Shown here one piece after another: positions 1 through 12,856 of a stretch of 64,000 nucleotides of DNA. How positions within the stretch are numbered: the stretch's first letter is position 1; the number at the start of each line of letters is the position of its first letter. A program made the translations under genes and the position numbers. Source of the DNA: an uncultured Dysosmobacter sp. (GTDB taxonomy: Bacteria; Bacillota; Clostridia; Oscillospirales; Oscillospiraceae); the NCBI RefSeq assembly GCF_947631635.1, contig NZ_CANRMB010000012.1:1-64000 (forward strand). Reading direction: 5' to 3'. Under the pieces are notes generated by a model. That model did no database searches. It had not been told where the DNA came from and saw only the letters and a list, made by a program, of their open reading frames with translations.

Positions 1-1284
1 GTTCGGTACATCGCCGTCAACGACGGAGTGGACAGCGCACAGGGCGACAACGATCTGACTCCGCTGCGTAATTTATTCAACGAATGGATGGTGAGAGACA
101 CGAGCAAGAAGATCAAGGCGGTCTTCAAATCCAAGGGCATGAGCGGCAAGCCCATCACAAGTCAGCCGGTCTACGGCTATCTGAAGGGCGAGGATGGAGG
201 CTTCATCGTGGACCCGGAAACCGCTCCGGTGGTCAAGCAGATATACAGTCTGTGCCTGGCTGGGAACGGTCCCACCAAGATAGCCCGGATGCTGACCGAG
301 CAGAACATCCCCACGCCGGGCACGATGGAATACCGGAGGACGGGCAGCACCCGGCGCTACTACCCTGACTACGCCTGCCGGTGGTCCGCCAATACGGTGG
401 GGCACATCCTGGAGCGCCGCGAATACTTGGGACATACGGTGAACTTCAAGACCGAAAAGGTGTCCTACAAGGTCAAGGCCAGCGTTATCAACCCGGAGGA
501 CAAGCTGGTGATCTTCGAGAACACCCATGAGCCGATCATCGACGAGGTGACTTGGGAGCGCGTCCAGGAACTTCGGAAACAGCGTAAGCGCCCCAACCGC
601 TATGACGAGGTGGGCCTGTTCTCCGGCCTGCTGTTCTGCGCCGACTGCGGCAGCGTCATGTATCAGCAGAGATACCAGACGGACAAGCGGAAACAGGACT
701 GCTATATCTGCGGCAGCTACAAGAAGCGCACCGCCGACTGTACGGCTCACTTCATCCGCACAGACCTGCTGACCGCCGGCGTGACCGCCAATCTGCGGAA
801 GGTCACCGACTACGCCGCCAGACATGAGGCCCGGTTTATGAAGCTGCTGGTCGCGCAGAACGAGGACGGCGGCAAGCGAAAGAACGCCGCCAAGCGCCGG
901 GAGCTGGACGCCGCCAGAAAGCGGATCACGGAGCTGTCCGCCATCTTCAAGCGGCTGTATGAGGACAGCGTGGCCGGACGCATCAGCGATGAACGCTTCA
1001 TGGAGCTGTCGGCAGAGTACGAACGGGAGCAGGCCGGGCTGAAAGAGCGCGCCGGTCAGTTGGAGGCGGAGTTAGCCAAGGCGCGGGATGCTACGGTGAA
1101 TGTGGAGCGGTTTATGAACGTGGTCCGCAAGTACACCAGCTTCGAGGAGCTGACCCCCACCCTGTTACGGGAGTTCATCGAGAAGATCGTGGTGCATGAG
1201 CCCTACAAGGACGAGAAGGGTATCCGCCGCCAGGATATTGAGATCTATTACAGCTTCGTGGGCAAGGTGGACCTGCCCGATTGA
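1..1284 (+). CDS. Large serine recombinase, C-terminal part (5' end outside window)
   Basis: The frame is open from base 1, so the gene starts left of the window; 427 codons are visible. The first residues (YIAVNDGVDS, then GDND, then DTSKKI) match the end of the catalytic resolvase domain and the long helix of TnpX/TndX-type recombinases. The Recombinase domain follows (about nt 130-520), then a zinc ribbon with CADCGS and CGSYKKRTADC (about nt 635-745), a coiled coil rich in E, R and A (about nt 880-1100) and a C-terminal DUF4368-like region. Proteins of this family excise and integrate conjugative or mobilizable elements. The serine catalytic residue would lie in the missing part. Being last in its element, it probably marks the right end of an integrated island to the left. 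Confidence 0.92.
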   Translation, partial: VRYIAVNDGVDSAQGDNDLTPLRNLFNEWMVRDTSKKIKAVFKSKGMSGKPITSQPVYGYLKGEDGGFIVDPETAPVVKQIYSLCLAGNGPTKIARMLTEQNIPTPGTMEYRRTGSTRRYYPDYACRWSANTVGHILERREYLGHTVNFKTEKVSYKVKASVINPEDKLVIFENTHEPIIDEVTWERVQELRKQRKRPNRYDEVGLFSGLLFCADCGSVMYQQRYQTDKRKQDCYICGSYKKRTADCTAHFIRTDLLTAGVTANLRKVTDYAARHEARFMKLLVAQNEDGGKRKNAAKRRELDAARKRITELSAIFKRLYEDSVAGRISDERFMELSAEYEREQAGLKERAGQLEAELAKARDATVNVERFMNVVRKYTSFEELTPTLLREFIEKIVVHEPYKDEKGIRRQDIEIYYSFVGKVDLPD

Positions 1285-3350: not shown

Positions 3351-3660
3351 CTGACATCCAGGGGAACCGGGCGACCATATAGCGGAGTTGTCCGCATATG
3401 GGAAGACAAAAATTGGAAAATATGACGAATAAATCAGATATTTACTCGCCATATTTTGTTAAAATTGTAGAAAACAGGAAGCGGTGATGGTATCATTTCA
3501 TTACCAAGGATTTTAGAATTTGGCAAACTTAAGAGGGATGAGCAAAACACGGGCCAAATGAAATCGTGCAGAGCAGAGACGGGGGGAGGCCGGAAGGGCG
3601 TTGGCGAAAAGCGTACAAAAACCAAACGCAGCAGAGAGCTGAGCGATAAAAGCGCAGCCC
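3351..3660. other. Gene-free junction between htrA and the cassette island
   Basis: About 310 bp with no supported gene. Base composition shifts from G+C-rich to A+T-rich near 3400, which marks the left edge of the acquired island. I see no recombinase gene or clear direct repeat here. Confidence 0.6.
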
Positions 3661-3927
3661 AAAAATGCGGAAGGCAAGTAATACTTGCCTAAATGTAAAC
3701 TGTGTGCGGTTTACATTTGACCGGATATTTCTTAAATTTGGAGGTGAAAGAATGGAGCTGTCTCAGAAACTAAAAGAATTGAGAAAGAAACAAGGACTGA
3801 CGCAGATAGAACTGGCCGAAAAACTATTTGTGTCCAGGCAGGCTGTAACCGGATGGGAAGCGGGAACATCGAGGCCGTCGACAGGAAATTTGCAGAGCCT
3901 GGGCAAGTTCTTTAATGTACCACTGGA
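3661..3927 (+). repeat. Cassette head, copy 1
   Basis: 267 bp that recur at 6118-6384 with about 11 differences by hand count (~96% identity) and no gaps noticed. The head covers the double operator, ribosome binding site and first ~58 codons of the XRE regulator. Similarity stops sharply after the codons for VPL, inside the gene, so the C-terminal part and everything downstream differ between cassettes. Confidence 0.9.
3672..3718 (+). promoter_or_regulatory. Double inverted-repeat operator of XRE regulator 1
   Basis: Two dyads lie in series: AGGCAAGTA-A-TACTTGCCT (3672-3690) and AAATGTAAAC-N8-GTTTACATTT (3691-3718). They end 33 bases before the ATG. Position and conservation in both cassettes suggest autoregulation by the XRE protein; binding is inferred. 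Confidence 0.7.
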
Positions 3928-4180
3928 CTATCTATTTAACGAAGGTGAAGACGAACCGCCGACTCCAATGGCCCCGGATGTGGAAAGGGGGGAGGTACAG
4001 AAAAAAGGAAGGCAGAGGATCAGGTGGCTTTTGATCGGCGCGGTAGTTTTTGTGCTGCTGGTATGTTTTCTTTCCTGGCATAGAAATAACCAGAAGAATG
4101 ATATGGATGATTTACATACGCTCCAAAGAGAAGATACTACTTTGGGTGAAGTTCCGAAATTTGATTTGAATTGGGATTAA
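3752..4180 (+). CDS. Membrane-anchored XRE-family transcription regulator (cassette 1)
   Basis: 142 residues from ATG 3752, chosen because GGAGGTG lies six bases upstream; a longer in-frame reading would run through the operator. An XRE/Cro helix-turn-helix fills residues 4-60 (GLTQIELAEKL, SRQAVTGWEAG). A hinge of about 30 residues follows, then one membrane helix (about 92-110) after a basic RQRIR stop-transfer motif, and an acidic extracellular tail of about 30 residues. This topology suits a one-component sensor that reads an outside or membrane signal and controls the adjacent operator. The next gene encodes an exported protein whose ribosome binding site starts right after this stop codon, so the two are probably co-translated. 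Confidence 0.88.
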   Translation: MELSQKLKELRKKQGLTQIELAEKLFVSRQAVTGWEAGTSRPSTGNLQSLGKFFNVPLDYLFNEGEDEPPTPMAPDVERGEVQKKGRQRIRWLLIGAVVFVLLVCFLSWHRNNQKNDMDDLHTLQREDTTLGEVPKFDLNWD

Positions 4181-4200
4181 AAGGAAGGGAGGTGAAACCA

Positions 4201-4608
4201 GTGAGAATGAAAAAATATCTTTGTTTAATGTTCGCCTGTCTTGCAATAGTCAGTTGTTTTTCTGTTCCTGCGGCTGCAGCTGATATTGGAGAACGGGTAA
4301 CAGAAATTACAGGACCAAAAGCAACAGGTAAATTTGATTTTGAGATTCCTGCAAAGACCCTGGCGGAAGCAAGTAGCAGCTTTCCGATGGATTATGGAGA
4401 AACCATTACCATCACGGCATCCTACGCTCCTGCCTCTGCGAGTATGGACTTCGGGCTGATTGACTCAGACGGGGTATTTTACTCCGTACCAGGAAGTAAT
4501 GGGAGCATTAACAGGACGATCAGGATCAATCTCAGAGGGACCTATACATTTGCGGTAAAAAACAACTCCAACTACGAAGTGAGTGTGTCTGGATTTGTAA
4601 ATTATTAA
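4201..4608 (+). CDS. Small exported beta-rich protein, cassette-1 paralog
   Basis: 135 residues from GTG 4201 (GGGAGGTG six bases upstream; ATG 4207 is the alternative). An N-terminal signal peptide (MKKYLCLMFACLAIVS with an AAA-A cleavage region) precedes a domain of about 100 residues rich in alternating polar and hydrophobic strands. Its core DFGLIDSDGVFY and YTFAVKNNSN recur in the protein at 6688-7107, which is clearly homologous (DFGLLDSDGVYH, YTLAIRNNSS). I do not recognise a named family; it looks like a single beta-sandwich. It always follows the membrane-anchored XRE regulator in this window, so it may be the regulator's extracellular partner or ligand (inference). Confidence 0.8.
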   Translation: MRMKKYLCLMFACLAIVSCFSVPAAAADIGERVTEITGPKATGKFDFEIPAKTLAEASSSFPMDYGETITITASYAPASASMDFGLIDSDGVFYSVPGSNGSINRTIRINLRGTYTFAVKNNSNYEVSVSGFVNY

Positions 4609-4644
4609 CAAGTAGTCACTCATCGGGAAAGAAAGGAGAATTAC

Positions 4645-5490
4645 ATGAGAAAGACAAGAAAGATTCTGGCGGCGTTGGTTCTAGCTCTGGCAATGACCCT
4701 GAGTAACACTGCATTTGCACTAGATGGAGTAGTAATTGAACCGATTGAACCGGATTACAAAGAAATTGTTGAGGAGGTCTTTCCGGGATACTGGGATGTA
4801 GAAATATCTCCGCAGTGGTCAAGCGGAGACAAGGACGTTGCAAATCCCGGGACACATGGTTATATCACTCAGGTTGCATATGATCTCCTCCGTGATGAAA
4901 AAAATGCTGCGTATTCATTTTATAGTGGGCAACGGACGAATCTTATTAGGGGATCAGTTTTACCTGATAAAGATGAAACACAAGGAATTTTGTTTCTATG
5001 GCATTTCTATGGACCAGATGGAAAGAGCTGGGATGGAAGCAGCGTTACAGCATACACAAAATGTATTGAGCATTATAATGATGCGGTAGACCTATATTAT
5101 GCTGGTTCTAAGGCCAGCGCTATGGAAGAACTTGGACGAGCACTTCATTATCTTCAGGACGTGAATGTTCCGCATCATGCAATGAATGTAACAGCCATAC
5201 ACATAGGAAATAACCATTCATCTTTTGAGAGCGAAGTTGAGGAAGATAAGGAGTCTTATGCGGTCACGGGATTTAATCAATCTGTTTATACTGATGCAGA
5301 TTATTCTCTTGGAACGATTATTGATGACCGTGCGGAAATTGCGAGAGATTGGTATGATGATGCTTCTTCCAGCAACAGAAGTGACCGTAATAGAGCTGCA
5401 GGAGCTTGTGTACGAAACTCCCAAAGAGCTACTGCGACAGTCCTTTATAAATTTATGTATGATGTGGGCTATATTGTGGATGTGCGATAA
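4645..5490 (+). CDS. Secreted zinc-dependent phospholipase C family protein
   Basis: 281 residues; signal peptide 1-26 and a pro-segment to about residue 57. The mature part begins WSSGDKD, like Bacillus cereus PLC. By comparison with that enzyme all zinc ligands seem present: W58, H71 (GTHGYIT), D108, H120 (LWHFYGP), H168 and D172 (ALHYLQDVNVPHHA), H178, H191 and E195 (NHSSFESE). The H168-D172-H178 spacing equals H118-D122-H128 of B. cereus PLC. The family hydrolyses phosphatidylcholine and related lipids outside the cell; some members are toxins (C. perfringens alpha-toxin), others serve nutrition. There is no C-terminal C2-like domain, so the protein is of the short Bacillus type. AAAGGAGA precedes the ATG. 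It is the main cargo of cassette 1; substrate is not determined. Confidence 0.88.
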   Translation: MRKTRKILAALVLALAMTLSNTAFALDGVVIEPIEPDYKEIVEEVFPGYWDVEISPQWSSGDKDVANPGTHGYITQVAYDLLRDEKNAAYSFYSGQRTNLIRGSVLPDKDETQGILFLWHFYGPDGKSWDGSSVTAYTKCIEHYNDAVDLYYAGSKASAMEELGRALHYLQDVNVPHHAMNVTAIHIGNNHSSFESEVEEDKESYAVTGFNQSVYTDADYSLGTIIDDRAEIARDWYDDASSSNRSDRNRAAGACVRNSQRATATVLYKFMYDVGYIVDVR

Positions 5491-5507
5491 ATGCGTATAC
5501 TGACGAT

Positions 5508-5843
5508 ATGATACAACTTTTCCTTTACAGTGGTGAAGAAGTCATACACTATGGGTTGCAGAATTTAGTTGTACGCATAATTCTAGCTGTGGAAGTTATT
5601 ACAATTTTACTCGGAATTATGATTGGCCTGTTCATTCACATCAATGGGAAGCGTTATATTTTGTTGGTGCTTCCTGGTTTTGTTGGTTGCTTGCTATTCG
5701 TTTTTATAAATACTTTGGGGGGGCTAGTGTTAAGCAATGCGGATATATGGCCTCCATTATTGGCGGAGGATTTGCTGGTTTTTTCTGTAATTTCCTGTAT
5801 GGTCTCGTATTTTAAGAAACGATGTAAATCGAGAGGTGTATGA
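5508..5843 (+). CDS. Small membrane protein, unknown
   Basis: 111 residues with three probable membrane helices (about 20-42, 48-70 and 85-103) and a basic C-terminus (KKRCKSR). It begins 17 bases after the phospholipase gene without a clear ribosome binding site, so translational coupling is assumed. No family recognised. As last gene of cassette 1 it could be an immunity-like or anchoring partner of the exported proteins, but nothing in the sequence shows this. Confidence 0.6.
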   Translation: MIQLFLYSGEEVIHYGLQNLVVRIILAVEVITILLGIMIGLFIHINGKRYILLVLPGFVGCLLFVFINTLGGLVLSNADIWPPLLAEDLLVFSVISCMVSYFKKRCKSRGV

Positions 5844-5848
5844 AAAAA

Positions 5849-5892
5849 GTGAGTGGGACGGGTGTTGCAGAGGAGGCACCTGTTCCACTCAC
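5849..5892 (+). terminator. Hairpin at the end of cassette-1 cargo
   Basis: A 16-bp stem (GTGAGTGGGACGGGTG with its partner, two G-U pairs) lies right after the last stop codon and an A run. The following T tract is missing; the conserved tail starts five bases later. Confidence 0.6.
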
Positions 5893-5896
5893 TGTA

Positions 5897-6030
5897 TAAC
5901 GGTTTACCCGTTCATGCCATTACAGAGCTTGAACGGGTAAACTGTTATACGGTTAGATTCCTGAATATGTTGCCCCCCTCCGTGCAGTATGGCAGGCAGC
6001 TTCATCAGCAGCTGGGCCGGCTGTCATCAA
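5897..6030. repeat. Cassette tail, copy 1
   Basis: 134 bp repeated at 9353-9486 with about five differences. It opens with a long hairpin (GGTTTACCCGTTCATG and partner) that carries mismatches in this copy, then an unstructured G+C-rich part. No family recognised. Confidence 0.9.
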
Positions 6031-6117
6031 GGGGTGACGATGATTTTGCTGGTAATTCCTTTTTGAAAAGGACACGCAAATGCGCTCAGAAAGTATGAAA
6101 CCATAAAAAAATAGCCG

Positions 6118-6384
6118 AAAAATGCGGAAGGCAAGTAATACTTGCCTAAATGTAAACCGCGTGCGGTTTACATTTGACTGGATATTTCTTAAATTTGGAG
6201 GTGAAAGAATGGAACTGTCTCAGAAACTAAAAGAATTAAGAAAGAAACAAGGGCTGACACAGATAGAACTGGCCGAAAAACTATTTGTGTCCAGGCAGGC
6301 TATAACTGGATGGGAAGCGGGAACATCGAGGCCGTCGACAGGAAATTTGCAGAGCCTGGGCAAGTTATTTAATGTCCCACTGGA
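6118..6384 (+). repeat. Cassette head, copy 2
   Basis: Second copy of the 267-bp head (see 3661-3927). It begins 87 bp after the tail of cassette 1, so the two cassettes are in tandem and in the same orientation. Confidence 0.9.
6129..6175 (+). promoter_or_regulatory. Double inverted-repeat operator of XRE regulator 2
   Basis: The same two dyads as at 3672-3718. The second is here a perfect 13-bp inverted repeat with a 2-nt centre: AAATGTAAACCGC-GT-GCGGTTTACATTT (6148-6175). Confidence 0.72.
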
Positions 6385-6682
6385 AATGCTTCTGGATGAC
6401 ACGGCAGAGGTGGAGCATGCGCCGGAGAAGATTTCTGTTGTGGAACGGTTGGAGGAAGAGAACAGGGAGCAGGAAACAGAACAGGCTGGAAGACACAAAA
6501 TCGTTATTCTTGTGATTGCATTCTTGCTGGTTTTGCTCACCGTAGCTGTACTGACGCATAGGGGAACAAATCAAGAAGATTCAGAAGATCTGGATTTCAG
6601 CATGATGAAAGACGAAGTCTGGGATACTGCTGAGGATGATATAGAATATGGAACACTTGGAAGATTTGATGAAGGGAGGTGA
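6209..6682 (+). CDS. Membrane-anchored XRE-family transcription regulator (cassette 2)
   Basis: 157 residues from ATG 6209 with GGAGGTG in front. Residues 1-58 are almost identical to the cassette-1 regulator, including the whole helix-turn-helix; after VPLE the sequences part. An E-rich linker (about 60-93) leads to one membrane helix (about 95-114) and an acidic 40-residue outer tail. Because the DNA-binding parts match, both regulators should bind both operators and could cross-regulate, while the unlike outer tails may sense different things (inference). The stop codon lies seven bases before the start of the next gene, whose ribosome binding site is inside this one. Confidence 0.88.
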   Translation: MELSQKLKELRKKQGLTQIELAEKLFVSRQAITGWEAGTSRPSTGNLQSLGKLFNVPLEMLLDDTAEVEHAPEKISVVERLEEENREQETEQAGRHKIVILVIAFLLVLLTVAVLTHRGTNQEDSEDLDFSMMKDEVWDTAEDDIEYGTLGRFDEGR

Positions 6683-6687
6683 AGGAA

Positions 6688-7107
6688 ATGCGCAGGTTTT
6701 CGTGTATGGTATTGACCGGGATGGCGATGATCGGATGCTTGTGTACCAGCGCCGGAGCAGTTGAAGGCTCAGATGCGATTTCAGGGGAATATGAACAGTC
6801 GGAAACGGCCATTGCACGGGCAACAGGCCCCCTCGACTGGACCATAAAGGCGAATAGCAGGAAAGTAATGGATACGGCTTTTTCCATGGCGGCAGGGGAA
6901 AGTGTACGAATTCGCGCAATCTACTCGCCGGAAGACGCCAGCCTGGACTTCGGATTGCTCGATTCGGACGGAGTATACCACTATATCAATGTGACAACAG
7001 GCAGCATTGACAAGACGATTGAGGTTCCGGAAAACGGAAGTTATACGCTGGCGATCAGGAACAATTCGAGCAACTCGGTCAAGGTGACTGGGATCGTGAG
7101 ATATTGA
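6688..7107 (+). CDS. Small exported beta-rich protein, cassette-2 paralog
   Basis: 139 residues from ATG 6688, six bases after GGGAGGTG. Signal peptide 1-24 (ends TSAGA). The C-terminal ~95 residues match the protein at 4201-4608: ATGPLDW, DFGLLDSDGVYH, TIEVPENGSYTLAIRNNSS. The order XRE regulator then this protein is kept in both cassettes while the other cargo changes, so the pair is a unit. No known family recognised. Confidence 0.8.
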   Translation: MRRFSCMVLTGMAMIGCLCTSAGAVEGSDAISGEYEQSETAIARATGPLDWTIKANSRKVMDTAFSMAAGESVRIRAIYSPEDASLDFGLLDSDGVYHYINVTTGSIDKTIEVPENGSYTLAIRNNSSNSVKVTGIVRY

Positions 7108-7115
7108 GCTGAATT

Positions 7116-7247
7116 ATGGTATCTAAAATTGGTTTTATAGGAACACTAATCTATATTTTTAGATTTGTGATCTTAATGACAATTGGTATGATTTTTGTCA
7201 AGTTAATAAAAAATAAGTCCCTTATCCGTGTAAGTGTTGTTGGCTAA
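7116..7247 (+). CDS. Possible 43-residue membrane peptide
   Basis: A short frame codes for one hydrophobic helix (FIGTLIYIFRFVILMTIGMIF) followed by a basic end (KLIKNKS). It begins nine bases after the preceding stop. There is no strong ribosome binding site, so it may be chance; its size and make-up resemble small membrane peptides. Confidence 0.3.
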   Translation: MVSKIGFIGTLIYIFRFVILMTIGMIFVKLIKNKSLIRVSVVG

Positions 7248-7271
7248 ATCAGTGAATAATCAGTTAATTTT

Positions 7272-7715
7272 GTGTATAAACATAGGAAGTGGTTTGATAT
7301 AAAACAACTGATAACAATGCTTCTGTTGCTGACATTTGTGTTGGCAATGGCAGGGTGTGGCAGTGGCAATCAGAAGGGTGATCCTTGGGTATGGGTACAA
7401 GCATTGAAAGCGGATGATATAAGTTCAGTTGCCATATGGTACGACAATGAAGAACAAGTAGCGCTTTCGCCAGATGAAATTGCTAAACTAATCACTCTGC
7501 TTAACGACCTGAAACAAAGCGACTTTACCGAAAACGAAGAGTTGACTGGCGGGACACCTGCTTATGGTGTTCAGATTACAACCGCAGATGACACATACTA
7601 CATCAATGAAGCTATTGCTCCATCTGGCACGTTGGAAATTAAATATGGCGAAAAAATGTGGTGGATTGATAACGAGGCATTGAGTAGTTTCATTAAAGGA
7701 AAAAATGAAGAATAA
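7272..7715 (+). CDS. Small lipoprotein, unknown
   Basis: Up to 147 residues. A hydrophobic leader ends in the lipobox LAMAGC, so the mature protein should be lipid-anchored on the outer face of the membrane. The mature part is about 115 residues, acidic, with a DDISSVAIWYDNEEQ stretch and a predicted mix of helices and strands. The start is uncertain: GTG 7272 gives a long N-region, ATG 7317 a very short one, and neither has a good ribosome binding site. No family recognised. It is specific to cassette 2. Confidence 0.65.
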   Translation: MYKHRKWFDIKQLITMLLLLTFVLAMAGCGSGNQKGDPWVWVQALKADDISSVAIWYDNEEQVALSPDEIAKLITLLNDLKQSDFTENEELTGGTPAYGVQITTADDTYYINEAIAPSGTLEIKYGEKMWWIDNEALSSFIKGKNEE

Positions 7716-7813
7716 CCATCGGCAGTCTTTCCGCTGAAACAACTATCCATTGAGGATATCTGCCCATTTTGTTAAGCGCTGCATAAATATGCATCATTTT
7801 AGATGGAAAGGCA

Positions 7814-7946
7814 GTATTATTTCCGAATTTAAAATTCGGAAATAATACAATTTGATTTCAGTCGTTTTGCGGTTGCCGCCGCTCTGCGGCGGCAACCGCA
7901 AAACATGACACCTATTACTTCCGACCTTTAAGTTCGGAAGTAATAG
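7814..7946. repeat. Three consecutive strong hairpins
   Basis: Three stems sit in a row: an A+T-rich 17-bp stem (7814-7848), a perfect 18-bp G+C-rich stem with a TCT loop (7865-7903), and a 13-bp stem with CTATTACTTCCGA (7912-7946). The outer two share the motif TATTA-TTCCGA. There is no T run after the central stem. The gap 7716-8002 holds nothing else apart from the ribosome binding site of the next gene. Confidence 0.75.
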
Positions 7947-8002
7947 CAGCACAAGATTAATAAGGGATAAAAATAAACGGTGAAAAAGAAAGGAAAAACA
8001 CT

Positions 8003-8530
8003 ATGAAGAGGTTTAGACAATTTGCATCTATGTTGCTAGCACTGTCCCTGGCACTCTCTATTGTGGCGCTTCCTGCTGCGGCCGTGGAACCCGAGACGTC
8101 GGAGGATATGCTTGAAGCGGCAATTATGGAGTACGGAAACTATAACACATATGAGTTGAGCGATGGTACGACTGTGATTGTAGGAGTGCTGCCGATTGCT
8201 AGTACTTATGGTGGGTATGATATTGAAAAAGGGGTTGCGCGTCCTACGGCTTCTCACAATTACCAATGTACGGCTGCAGAAGGAAATTACTGTAGGAGTG
8301 CTGCGTACAATATCGATGAGAACGACACCAGTTTGACTGCAACACTTACGTACGATGCATCGGTTGATGCGGTGAGCGAAACAAAAAAGTTAGCACCCGG
8401 TGAGCGACTTGTTATGGTGGCAAAATCGACTACGAGCGGGGGCTTGACGGGAAAAATGTCTGCGGTGCTTACTGCGGTAAGGGCGGATTCTGTGACGTAC
8501 AGTTATACGGTCGATCAATATTGGGCATAA
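8003..8530 (+). CDS. Exported protein, unknown (cassette 2)
   Basis: 175 residues with a clear signal peptide (1-27, ends LPAAAVE). The mature part is T-, S- and Y-rich and beta-like, with GVLPIASTYGGYDI and two cysteines near the centre (QCTAAEGNYC) that could form a disulfide. AAAGGA stands ten bases before the ATG. No family recognised. The end resembles the strand pattern of the other exported cargo proteins, but I see no clear homology. Confidence 0.7.
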   Translation: MKRFRQFASMLLALSLALSIVALPAAAVEPETSEDMLEAAIMEYGNYNTYELSDGTTVIVGVLPIASTYGGYDIEKGVARPTASHNYQCTAAEGNYCRSAAYNIDENDTSLTATLTYDASVDAVSETKKLAPGERLVMVAKSTTSGGLTGKMSAVLTAVRADSVTYSYTVDQYWA

Positions 8531-8560
8531 GACCGATTACAATTATATGGGAAAAATTAT

Positions 8561-9298
8561 ATGGGAAAAAATAAAATGAAGCCGTTCCTTTGTGGGATGG
8601 TCGTTATGTCCTTGCTGATGGTTTTGTGCGGTGCTGCAATGGAGCCATCTGGAAACGTGTGCTTTAATACAGCAAGTTTATCTATTAATGGCAACCGAAT
8701 TATACAAGAGGGAACGAATTTGAAAACGGCTTCTGGGGCGGATATCCCATCCATTATCCAATATACAGATTCGCAGGGGGCTATTACAAATTACATTCCG
8801 ATACGATTTTTATTGGAATCAATGGGCATGGAGGTAACCTGGCAAGGATTCCGCAACAACATCGATGTGGAAGTAGAGGGCGATGCAGCATTGTATACCA
8901 TGGAACTGGACAGCGCAGGAACAATTTATAATGGTGGCCAGTTCGAAGAGGTAAAACCGATAAGTCCAACCAAAGGGAAAGAAATATTGACAACGGAATA
9001 CCTGGCGAAAGATGCTTTTGAGAAAACACTGGATTTGCACGAAGAAGATGGAGACTTTGTAAGTGTCACTGTAACCAACAATGGCAAGTATCCCTTACAA
9101 TTCGGCCTGGGGCAAAGTATGGCGTCTGCCATAGTGACGAATCCGACAGGAGCACCTGCAGGACAGAGTGTGACCCGAACAATCAAAATAAATGATTGGG
9201 ATTCCATGAAGAGTGGTATTTGCGTAAGTATCGGAAATGCTGATTATATTTCGCGGTATTTGAATATTACTGTTGATGTGATCCAGTTTGCGCAGTGA
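8561..9298 (+). CDS. Exported protein with copper amine oxidase N-like (stalk) domain
   Basis: 245 residues; signal-like hydrophobic stretch 8-26. Residues about 36-107 (SINGNRIIQEGTNL, YIPIRFLLESMGMEVTW) match the pattern of the short surface 'stalk'/Cu-amine-oxidase N domain common in Clostridia. The rest (about 155-245) is beta-rich with VSVTVTNNGKYPLQF and could be a second sandwich domain. ATG 8561 or 8576 may be the start; a duplicated ATATGGGAAAAA motif blurs the choice and no good ribosome binding site is seen. Last cargo gene of cassette 2; probably cell-surface. Confidence 0.68.
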   Translation: MGKNKMKPFLCGMVVMSLLMVLCGAAMEPSGNVCFNTASLSINGNRIIQEGTNLKTASGADIPSIIQYTDSQGAITNYIPIRFLLESMGMEVTWQGFRNNIDVEVEGDAALYTMELDSAGTIYNGGQFEEVKPISPTKGKEILTTEYLAKDAFEKTLDLHEEDGDFVSVTVTNNGKYPLQFGLGQSMASAIVTNPTGAPAGQSVTRTIKINDWDSMKSGICVSIGNADYISRYLNITVDVIQFAQ

Positions 9299-9313
9299 TC
9301 AATTTTATGTAGG

Positions 9314-9352
9314 ATAAGGGAGGGATGTGGAATATCTGCGTCCCTCCCTTAT
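9314..9352 (+). terminator. Hairpin at the end of cassette-2 cargo
   Basis: A perfect 12-bp stem ATAAGGGAGGGA with its complement and a 15-nt loop directly abuts the conserved tail. It mirrors the hairpin at 5849-5892 in position, not in sequence. Confidence 0.65.
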
Positions 9353-9486
9353 TAACGGTTTACCCGTTCATGCCCTTACAGGGCATGAACGGGTAAACCG
9401 TTATACGGTTAGATTCCTGAATATGTTGACCCCCTCCGTGCAGTATGGCAGGCAGCTTCATCAGCAGCTGGGCCGGCTGTCATCAA
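9353..9486. repeat. Cassette tail, copy 2
   Basis: 134-bp tail as at 5897-6030. Here the opening hairpin is perfect over 23 bp (9353-9375 with 9381-9403, TTACA loop). The A+T-rich island ends here; host sequence with the ychF promoter follows. Confidence 0.9.
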
Positions 9487-9560
9487 GAAGCCACAATACC
9501 CGATTTTCATGGGAACCTACCACGGGAGAAATTTTGTTTCGGCATTTGCGGGACGACAGC

Positions 9561-11641: not shown

Positions 11642-11781
11642 GTCAATAGAAATATTGCAATCTTGGGAAGAGAATTTGCCGATGGAATAGACGGGGAGCG
11701 TCCGGCCACAAGGCGGGGAGGTAGATTTCGCGCCGCGGGCGCGGGACGGGGTTTTTCCGCCTGCGGGCGGGGACGAGGGAT

Positions 11782-12718
11782 GTGCCGCTTTGCGGCACGG
11801 GAATGAACCCCCATTTTCTTTTCGGTTGCGCCGAAAAGAAAACGGCCGTTCACGGTCAAAAGAAAAGGCGCTTTGGTGTCCACAGTCGGCCCCTAGGGCC
11901 AACTGTGGACAAGACGTGGGGTCCCAGAAAGAGACCGTTGGTGGTCGAGGCTGGATTTTGCGTTGGGCGCGGGCACGGCTTTGCTGAATCTTTTGGCTTT
12001 TAGCCACGCGAATGGGAATTGCGGGAACGGGCAAAGACTGAAAGGACCAGCGGTTCCTTTCGCTGCCGCTCTTTGATTCCTTGCGGAAGCGTCTGCGTGT
12101 GGGCCTTATACGGGACCATGCAGTGGCAGCGGGGCCAGCGGTGAAAACCTTTCGATGGACCCCCCGAATCTGCACCCAAGCCGCCAACCTGCGGGGGGCG
12201 AAATCCTACCTTCGTACCCAGTCCGGCGTCCCCGCCAGAGGCTAATGTAAGCGCCCAGGTAGTGTGTAGCGAAGCGGAACACACGGGGCCAGTGGTAAAA
12301 GTCTTTCATCGACCACCCCAAATCTACATCCAAACTTCCAAATGCGGCTTAGTATCCCTACCCTCGTACCCGGTATAGCGCACCCGGCAGAGGCCAATCT
12401 AACCGCCCAGGTAGTGTGTAGCGGAGCGGAACACACGGGGCTTGTTGCCGAAAGCCTTTCAATGAGCACCCCGGATTTGCGCCCAAGCCCCCAACTTGCG
12501 GCGGCGCAGCTCTAAATTCGTACCCAGTATAGCGCACCCGGCAGGATGCTTCCGGGCTTGGTGGCACATCTAACCACCAACTCCCGTCCGTCCACAGTTG
12601 GCCCGATGGGCCAATTGTGGACACAAAAGCGCCTTTTCTTTTGACCGTGAACGGCCGTTTTCTTTTCGGCGCAATCGAAAAGAAAATGGGGGTTCATTCC
12701 CGTGCCGCAAAGCGGCAC
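11782..12718. mobile_element. MITE-like element, copy A (937 bp core)
   Basis: Bounded by inverted repeats 11782-11910 and 12590-12718, each 129 bp and about 95% identical by hand alignment. The repeats contain small hairpins: TGCCGC-TTT-GCGGCA, TTTTCTTTTCGG with its complement, and CCACAGT..GGCCC with GGGCCAACTGTGG. Outside both ends the symmetry weakly continues for ~60 bp as G+C-rich palindromes (CCGCCTGCGGGCGG). No transposase or credible gene lies inside; short frames through the repeats are not protein-like. A second copy is at 22790-23840. Confidence 0.82.
12255..12552. repeat. Internal tandem units of element A
   Basis: Two good copies of a ~151-bp unit start at about 12255 and 12405, with a degraded third before them (about 12120). 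Each begins GCCCAGGTAGTGTGTAGC, then GAACACACGGGG (a TGTGT/ACACA hairpin), and ends near a GTATAGCGCACCCGGCAG motif. Confidence 0.75.
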
Positions 12719-12856
12719 ACTCCCCCGTCCCCGCCCCGTGGGCGGAAAAACCTCCCGCACCCATGGCGCGCCCCCCCCGTCCCCGCCCGCAGGCGCCCCT
12801 GCGCCCAGATTCAAATTCCGATCCCTATAACAGGACATCCATAAAAAACACATGAA

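What the first reader, a model, noticed from the sequence alone, without database searches (positions are those of the whole stretch)
3661..9486. Tandem cargo cassettes with conserved ends and exchanged contents
Two adjacent modules share a 267-bp head (~96% identical) and a 134-bp tail (~96% identical). What lies between is different: 2 kb with a zinc phospholipase C and membrane protein versus 3 kb with a lipoprotein and two exported proteins. The head boundary falls inside the regulator gene after the HTH, so each cassette carries its own sensor end and cargo behind a shared DNA-binding end. No transposase or integrase is inside. This looks like a family of modules that spread or swap cargo by recombination through the shared ends, and I know no named system of this kind.
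Basis: partly seen in the sequence, partly recalled or inferred. Interest (0 to 1): 0.87.

Follow-up and report, generated by a model that had tools for sequence, protein, structure and literature searches.

The report
Plasmid-borne operons with swappable exported cargo
Two neighbouring operons in a relative of the gut bacterium Oscillibacter belong to a patchily spread family, found also on small circular plasmids, in which a constant switch gene and a constant secreted protein are followed by differing exported proteins, and one of the two shows a clear trace of parts swapped by recombination.

Summary
The repeats are real. Cargo exchange through shared ends is largely supported, with corrections.

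Cassette A is a mosaic: 96% identical to B up to 3922-3929, then 94% to a cassette of another species and 50% to B (max-chi 276, at most 22.7 in 10,000 permutations). Simple duplication is excluded.

The small protein occurs in 34 of 400 family genomes. In five congeneric genomes at one chromosomal site, core and flanks align but cargo does not.

The tail is not a cassette end as such: it is the element 0.7-1 kb before the integrase gene on 8-15 kb circular plasmids; 4 of 8 such plasmids carry the cassette directly before it. The array lies between htrA and ychF, adjacent in a relative.

Likely mechanism: plasmid delivery, homologous exchange, loss of backbone (inferred). Cargo function (effector plus membrane immunity?) is unproven. 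A new variant of known modular cargo exchange.

The parts
3351..9559 (+). stretch present here but absent between htrA and ychF in relative G029 (L010), where 35 bp separate the two alignable flanks
   Evidence: left flank aligns to window 3350 (htrA terminator), right flank from window 9560 (ychF promoter region)
3661..3927 (+). head, copy A (operator, promoter region, regulator start up to end of HTH)
   Evidence: 96% to copy B; recombination breakpoint at 3922-3929
3691..3718 (+). operator palindrome A, GTAAAC-N8-GTTTAC, 57 bp before the regulator start
   Evidence: (2 in window, 0 expected)
3752..4180 (+). regulator A: Xre HTH, one TM segment (by eye), short outer C-terminus; mosaic gene
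   Evidence: (HTH_3, E 8.4e-17)
4207..4608 (+). small exported protein A (constant partner of the regulator); 91% aa identity to the G013:C19 copy
4645..5490 (+). cargo A1: exported Zn-dependent phospholipase C-like protein; no match in the other 85 of 86 genus genomes
5508..5843 (+). cargo A2: small protein with three hydrophobic segments
5848..5893 (+). terminator-like hairpin A
   Evidence: -33.6 kcal/mol, z -6.4
5895..6031 (+). tail A: long palindrome 5895-5949 plus conserved 3' part; relative of the plasmid element before int
6118..6384 (+). head, copy B
6148..6175 (+). operator palindrome B
6209..6682 (+). regulator B: Xre HTH, one TM segment (by eye)
   Evidence: (HTH_3, E 9.9e-16)
6688..7107 (+). 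small exported protein B
   Evidence: best family match DUF7239, below Pfam's cut-off
7272..7715 (+). cargo B1: lipoprotein (GTG start, uncertain)
7815..7945 (+). 131-bp MITE-like inverted-repeat element inserted in cassette B
8003..8530 (+). cargo B2: exported protein, no Pfam or NCBIfam match
8561..9298 (+). cargo B3: exported, weak Cu_amine_oxidN1 match below cut-off; a relative is cargo of another cassette (G104:C16, L089)
9316..9350 (+). terminator-like hairpin B, unlike A's in sequence
   Evidence: -26.9 kcal/mol, z -7.0
9353..9487 (+). tail B: long palindrome 9353-9403 plus conserved 3' part

Best explanation
The two cassettes are members of a family of modular, horizontally spread operons. 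A constant 5' module (operator GTAAACCG-N4-CGGTTTAC, an Xre regulator with one TM helix that presumably binds that operator, and a small exported protein) is followed by a variable block of exported proteins, often with a small membrane protein or lipoprotein. Relatives ride on small circular tyrosine-recombinase/ParA plasmids, between parA and the palindromic tail; on one small circle with a Rep_3-like initiator; and on a tRNA-Thr-flanked element. Copies settle in chromosomes, lose the plasmid backbone, and exchange contents with resident or incoming copies by homologous recombination inside the constant stretches (after the HTH, after the small gene, or in the tail). Shown: shared ends, mosaic of cassette A, cargo that fails to align at one site in five genomes, orphan fragments, plasmid carriage of relatives, and an unoccupied site in a relative. 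Inferred: that plasmids are the donors, that homologous recombination rather than the plasmid integrase makes the exchanges, that the regulator represses its own operon through the operator and senses something outside through its TM part, and that the cargo are competition effectors with membrane immunity partners.
For: Mosaic: window A against B is 96% over 3661-3927 and 50% over 3990-4540; against G013:C19 it is 66% and 94%; max-chi 276, against at most 22.7 in 10,000 permutations (sliding identities). Family: small protein in 12 of 86 genus genomes, 34 of 400 family genomes at E<=0.001, a few marginal, and 11 of 345 order genomes at E<=1e-10; regulator found beside it in 26 of 30 loci examined. 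Operator exact in 19 of 36 regulator upstream regions and within 2 mismatches in 24 of 36, against 0 and 0.043 per shuffled region; the 36 include some near-identical copies. Cargo difference: five genus-g46 genomes at one zapA/U32-peptidase site, flanks 83-95% identical, core 75-93%, no cargo alignment listed in 10 of 10 pairs. Orphan traces: L087 and L124 (small-gene 3' ends repeated), L037 (135-bp head fragment before extra cargo). Plasmids: 8 of 8 circular int contigs, and both backbone copies in F. plautii NZ_CP095095, have the tail 0.7-1 kb before int; 4 of the 8 have operator, regulator and small gene before the tail. L037 keeps parA, RHH and int-upstream remnants around its cassettes. 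Unoccupied htrA-ychF site in G029. tRNA-Thr copies flank the element in G090.
Against: The window itself holds no plasmid backbone beyond the tail: the spacer after tail A scores no better against the backbone than shuffled sequence, and no backbone protein matches the window. The A_PLC cargo has no relative in the other 85 of 86 genus genomes, so its donor is unseen. The genome set holds one genome per species, so exchange within a species was not tested. Four of the 8 circular int plasmids, and F. plautii's, do not carry the cassette; in G033:C55 the interval before the tail is nearly empty. Effector/immunity is weakly supported: small multi-TM partners in 14 of 35 loci (counted, cargo ORFs picked partly by hand), PADLOC matched 0 of 73 cargo proteins, NCBIfam 2 of 73 weakly, and few had any Pfam family. 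The G090 deletion joint lies inside a cargo gene, not at a shared end. The small gene of one of the five g46 genomes has an in-frame stop.
Confidence: 0.72

Rival explanations
1. Simple local tandem duplication of one operon, followed by divergence of the middle.
For: Direct tandem orientation; head and tail found at DNA level only here in this genome.
Against: After the breakpoint, A is 94% identical to a cassette of another species and only 50% to B; no match between cargo of A and cargo of B was listed in the all-vs-all comparison.
Confidence: 0.05
2. Site-specific cassette system: the plasmid tyrosine recombinase recognises the palindromic tail (attC- or dif-like) and inserts or excises cargo there.
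For: The tail lies 0.7-1 kb before int in 8 of 8 circular int contigs and in both F. plautii copies; all 7 exact tail places in 86 genus genomes are either on int contigs (5) or after regulator-small cassettes (2).
Against: The spacer between the palindrome arms varies in length across copies, unusual for a recombinase core site (recalled); no tail-like site was seen at the head end; the g46 loci show no tail match at E<=1e-3; one int copy on a larger contig lacks the tail.
Confidence: 0.15
3. Old chromosomal paralogous operons homogenised by gene conversion; the plasmids merely picked some up, and exchange is rare.
For: Many copies are on larger contigs that look chromosomal; the g46 core sits at one site in five genomes; the own genome has five copies.
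Against: Patchy presence; relatives on plasmids and on a tRNA-flanked element; plasmid remnants around copies in G013 and G008.
Confidence: 0.12
4. Same module biology, but the cargo are host-surface, nutrient or adhesion proteins rather than competition effectors.
For: Most cargo have no family; those matched include SH3_3, solute-binding, Cu_amine_oxidN1-like and DUF5022 domains.
Against: Some cargo are hydrolase-like (phospholipase C, Amidase_6, Peptidase_A4), and exported plus small membrane pairs recur.
Confidence: 0.45

Closest known systems
Polymorphic toxin systems (Rhs, CdiA and others; PMC3482391, passages read)
   Same: Constant 5' part, variable 3' content replaced by recombination, and standalone cassettes nearby.
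   Different: Here the constant part is separate genes (regulator and small exported protein), not the N-terminus of a toxin; cargo are whole genes; no toxin or immunity activity is known; no RHS or filamentous haemagglutinin family is among the Pfam matches.
Plasmid systems with backbone and cargo genes in gut metagenomes (PMC10914615, passages read)
   Same: A conserved small-plasmid backbone with differing cargo.
   Different: The passages seen describe no operator-regulator-small-protein module and no chromosomal tandem copies; the terms oscillospir, secreted and bacteriocin do not occur in its main text.
Listeria XRE-controlled secreted metzincin plus TIMP-like lipoprotein locus (PMC8235301, abstract and outline read)
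   Same: Xre-type control of a secreted enzyme and a lipoprotein partner of mobile-element origin.
   Different: Two XRE regulators acting as a CI/Cro switch, phage origin, no cargo exchange described in the abstract.
Pneumococcal blp bacteriocin immunity region (search listing only)
   Same: One regulated locus with variable bacteriocin/immunity content.
   Different: Peptide bacteriocins with a dedicated quorum-sensing system and transporter (recalled).
Integron gene cassettes / pdif modules (recalled)
   Same: Cargo next to a palindromic site near a tyrosine recombinase.
   Different: No site seen at both ends, each unit has its own regulator, no integrase matched in the window, variable spacer in the palindrome.

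Membership tests
Polymorphic toxin system | Variable content behind a constant 5' part, exchanged by recombination | tested here: met
Polymorphic toxin system | Toxin domain fused to the constant trafficking protein | tested here: not met
   Cargo are separate genes after the small gene; the constant genes carry no toxin domain match
Polymorphic toxin system | Displaced or orphan cassettes with fragments of the constant part | tested here: met
   L087, L124, L037
Polymorphic toxin system | Toxin activity neutralised by a cognate immunity protein | not testable with these tools
   Only sequence hints
Plasmid system (backbone plus cargo) | Circular elements sharing a backbone with different cargo | tested here: met
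   8 circular int contigs: 7 with exact terminal overlap of 77-125 bp, G079:C75 with a 49-bp 98% overlap
Plasmid system (backbone plus cargo) | The window array is itself such a plasmid | tested here: not met
   It lies between htrA and ychF; no backbone proteins match
Integron / pdif-type cassette | Recombination site at both borders of each cassette | tested here: not met
   Tail at the 3' end only; the head is an operator with regulator
Integron / pdif-type cassette | Recombinase acts on the palindrome | not testable with these tools
   Only nearness of tail and int is known
Composite transposon or IS-borne module | Terminal inverted repeats with a transposase | tested here: not met
   No transposase among the nine proteins scanned; the head and tail repeats are direct

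The most novel reading that the evidence does not exclude
A plasmid-disseminated polymorphic effector system of gut Clostridia. A membrane-tethered Xre switch and its operator, with a small secreted partner, form a portable constant front end onto which exported effector plus membrane-immunity modules are swapped, on plasmids and at fixed chromosomal sites. It would be a third layout beside Rhs/CdiA-type toxins and blp-type bacteriocin loci, and its spent modules would be left as orphans.
Probability: 0.33. Interest if true: 0.78.

Novelty: new variant of a known kind. Interest (0 to 1): 0.6.

Why it matters
If right, little-studied Clostridia (relatives of Dysosmobacter, Oscillibacter and Flavonifractor) have a portable front end that lets them change what they export, in the way other bacteria change toxin tips. 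It gives a handle (small-protein profile, operator, tail) to find many uncharacterised exported proteins, ties small circular plasmids to chromosomal loci, and predicts testable effector/immunity pairs and a membrane-tethered repressor with a defined operator.

Tried and rejected
Simple duplication: rejected by the mosaic. Plasmid remnant in the spacer or flanks of the array: tested, not above shuffles, dropped. Phage origin: the 6.3-kb region matches only a 67-base stretch at the ychF start in one phage record, and the small-protein profile finds no relative in IMG/VR. Plasmid records with the small protein: none in PLSDB, although integrase relatives are there. IMG/VR scan with the integrase: nothing. 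An exact shared boundary in L083, L076 and L046 first looked like a cassette end; it is the start of a common downstream stretch with a Fic-like gene (recognised by eye, no search run), and the G090 contig is a deletion joint inside a cargo gene. Antisense ORF 'minus350' was a spurious frame over parA. Tail as a terminator: each window cassette already has its own terminator-like hairpin before the tail, so not favoured. PDB search with the small-protein profile: no match at E<=1. No core-gene tree against a species tree was built.

Selection to note: cargo ORFs were chosen from ORF lists partly by eye for signal peptides. 80 were compared, one of which (L037 12594) proved to be a stop-ridden frame; 73 of the 80 were scanned. 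Left out of the scan: L037 12594, L086 7902, L119 5035, L120 2991, L123 6689, L129 1326, L154 3211. Family-search hits with marginal E-values (about 1e-3 to 1e-5) were not followed. The slot contents of G084:C35 were not examined. The g46 cargo comparison listed plus-strand pieces over 60 bp only.
Full report
OBSERVATION. The two direct repeats exist: 3646-3927 / 6103-6384 (282 nt, 94%; core of 272 nt at 96%) and 5888-6031 / 9344-9487 (144 nt, 94%; core of 135 nt at 96%). Between them lie unrelated genes.

MOSAIC. Cassette A changes ancestry inside the regulator gene. Against cassette B it is 96% identical over 3661-3927 and 50% over 3990-4540. Against a cassette of another species (G013:C19, L037) it is 66% and 94%. 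Of 400 informative sites, the split at 3922-3929 gives 89:3 before and 24:284 after (max-chi 276; the largest of 10,000 permutations was 22.7) (sliding identities). A therefore has a B-type operator and DNA-binding domain on a foreign sensor end and small gene. Its tail is again B-like (96%). This is a direct trace of recombination between cassettes and excludes plain duplication.

FAMILY. A profile of the small protein finds relatives in 12 of 86 genomes of the genus, 34 of 400 of the family at E<=0.001 (a few marginal) and 11 of 345 of the order at E<=1e-10, in four families. The 9 named loci include Dysosmobacter, Oscillibacter valericigenes and Pseudoflavonifractor assemblies. The own genome has five copies: two here, one on contig C28, and two in tandem on C17. 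The regulator was found in 26 of 30 loci; two of the other four have a regulator C-terminal piece next to the small gene (L122, at its contig end, and L123), and two (L091, L119) showed none. An operator GTAAAC-N8-GTTTAC is exact in 19 of 36 regulator upstream regions, 49-64 bp before the start in 18 of these 19, and within two mismatches in 24 of 36; shuffled regions give 0 and 0.043 (some of the 36 are near-identical copies). It occurs on the five plasmids examined that carry the regulator and is absent from the five plasmid loci without it, so it goes with the regulator.

CARGO DIFFERS AT ONE SITE. Five genus-g46 genomes (L127, L128, L131, L135, L158) have the core at one chromosomal site upstream of zapA and a U32 peptidase (names by eye). 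Flanks align at 83-95% and regulator plus small gene at 75-93%, but between the small gene's 3' end (12-133 bp past its stop) and the stretch before zapA no alignment is listed in 10 of 10 pairs (blastn, E<=1e-3, plus strand, pieces over 60 bp). The small gene of one of the five (G500) has an in-frame stop. L128 also lacks an upstream regulator-bearing stretch that L127 and L158 share.

ORPHAN TRACES. L087 repeats the 3' end of its small gene twice more (68 bp at 97%, 52 bp at 87%) beside further exported/membrane genes. L124 does so once (111 bp, 93%). L037 has a 135-bp head fragment, with a regulator frame that stops after 23 codons, directly before another exported/membrane gene pair, and a 1.16-kb regulator-small duplication at 99%. 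Cargo families seldom recur: 16 of 3160 pairs are listed at E<=1e-3, some only in the signal peptide (a pair reported in one direction only may be missed). One recurrence is B's third cargo with a cargo of G104:C16 (L089).

THE TAIL IS A PLASMID ELEMENT. The exact long palindrome occurs at only 7 places in 86 genus genomes. Five are on contigs with a 340-aa gene that weakly matches Phage_integrase (below Pfam's cut-off; 84% identical to a protein of an F. plautii plasmid); the other two follow regulator-small cassettes (window B and G007:C88). Leaving aside one int copy on a larger contig, eight int-bearing contigs were found (five in the genus, three in the family sample). Seven have exact terminal overlaps of 77-125 bp and the eighth a 49-bp 98% overlap: circular plasmids of 8.0-15.2 kb. 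The usual circular order is p503, parA (some with an RHH gene), slot, tail, int, p255, the tail 0.7-1 kb before int. Four of the eight hold operator, regulator and small gene in the slot. Of the rest, G064:C2 has a sigma factor and exported/membrane genes there and G033:C54 other exported/membrane genes; G033:C55 has almost nothing between its RHH gene and the tail, its exported genes lying before parA; and G084:C35, which has only a p503 fragment and a Rep_3 gene, was not examined there. The F. plautii plasmid NZ_CP095095 has two backbones with a tail each and no exact operator. A ninth circle (G295:C132, 6.1 kb) carries operator, regulator and small gene with a Rep_3-like initiator and no match to int, parA, p503, p255 or the tail. 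G013 cassettes keep parA, RHH and int-upstream remnants, and a G008 cassette an RHH gene. In the window only the tail is left: 76-77 nt align to plasmid L090 at E about 1e-12, and the spacer after tail A is no better than shuffled sequence. An int copy without tail or cassette lies on a 59.9-kb contig of G261.

OTHER CARRIERS AND UNOCCUPIED SITE. The G007/G090 cassettes lie on a stretch with a relaxase-like and an integrase-like gene (names by eye from translations); in G090 it is bracketed by two tRNA-Thr genes. Over 8.9 kb the two genomes are 98.5% identical, but G090 lacks the stretch from inside the first cargo to just after the last one; the G007 array is split over two contigs that a third genome's contig (L076) bridges. 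The joint is inside a gene, so this loss did not use the shared ends. At the window's site, G029 has htrA and ychF adjacent with 35 bp between the alignable flanks, so 3351-9559 is extra here. Three more relatives (L014, L022, L023) have htrA less than 0.9 kb upstream of ychF.

HOW IT LIKELY WORKS. Shown: constant front, variable contents, recombinant structure, plasmid carriage of relatives. Inferred: the regulator represses the operon through its own operator and reads an outside signal through its TM end; plasmids bring new cargo; homologous recombination in the constant stretches exchanges it; plasmid backbone is later lost. What the cargo does is open. Of 79 cargo proteins compared without stops, 73 have a hydrophobic stretch starting in the first 30 residues, and 14 of 35 loci include a protein under 160 aa with two or more hydrophobic segments (counted; crude threshold, ORFs chosen partly by eye). 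Known enzyme-like folds are few: phospholipase C, Amidase_6, Peptidase_A4. PADLOC matched 0 of 73 and NCBIfam 2 of 73, weakly. Exported effector plus membrane immunity is my guess, at less than even odds.

COMPARISON. In logic it resembles polymorphic toxins (passages of PMC3482391), where recombination replaces the variable end of a constant gene body; it fails the fused-toxin feature, and toxicity is untested, so it is not filed there. As a carrier it resembles the plasmid systems of PMC10914615 (passages). An Xre-controlled secreted enzyme/lipoprotein pair is known in Listeria (PMC8235301, abstract and outline), with no exchange described in the abstract. My literature searches listed no paper whose title or abstract start describes this family; they cover only the open-licence library. 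Unexplained: the tail arms contain the same CGGTTTAC half-site as the operator, in opposite arrangement, even on plasmids without the regulator.

Noticed in passing
window 7815-7945: 131-bp inverted-repeat element inside cassette B; related copies at several places in two congeneric genomes (G033, G034) and at fewer in others, so it looks like a MITE.
   Followed up: partly
window 11781-12719: 130-bp inverted repeats (95%) about 680 bp apart, enclosing three imperfect direct repeats at 152-154 bp spacing, downstream of ychF.
   Followed up: no
window 28-1284: C-terminal part of what looks like a large serine recombinase (name by eye) at the very start of the contig, upstream of htrA.
   Followed up: no
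window 5895-5949 and 9353-9403; plasmids L090, L121, L138, L154-L157, L159: The tail arms contain the 8-mer CGGTTTAC that is also the operator half-site, in opposite arrangement, also on plasmids without the regulator.
   Followed up: partly
L159 (NZ_CP095095.1, Flavonifractor plautii VE303-08 plasmid, 21.8 kb): The record holds two copies of the same int plasmid backbone with different genes between, as in a fused pair of plasmids; each copy has its own tail.
   Followed up: partly
L154 1884-3112: An int plasmid whose slot is headed by a sigma-70-type factor and a DUF4367 protein instead of the Xre regulator, again followed by exported/membrane genes.
   Followed up: no
L156 / G033:C55: An int plasmid with almost nothing between its RHH gene and the tail, perhaps an empty slot; its exported genes, one a Peptidase_A4 match, lie before parA instead.
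   Followed up: no
L037 1192-1416 (minus strand): A related Xre regulator with a head-like upstream stretch but no small gene found beside it, next to an exported protein: the operator-regulator head may be older than the two-gene core.
   Followed up: no
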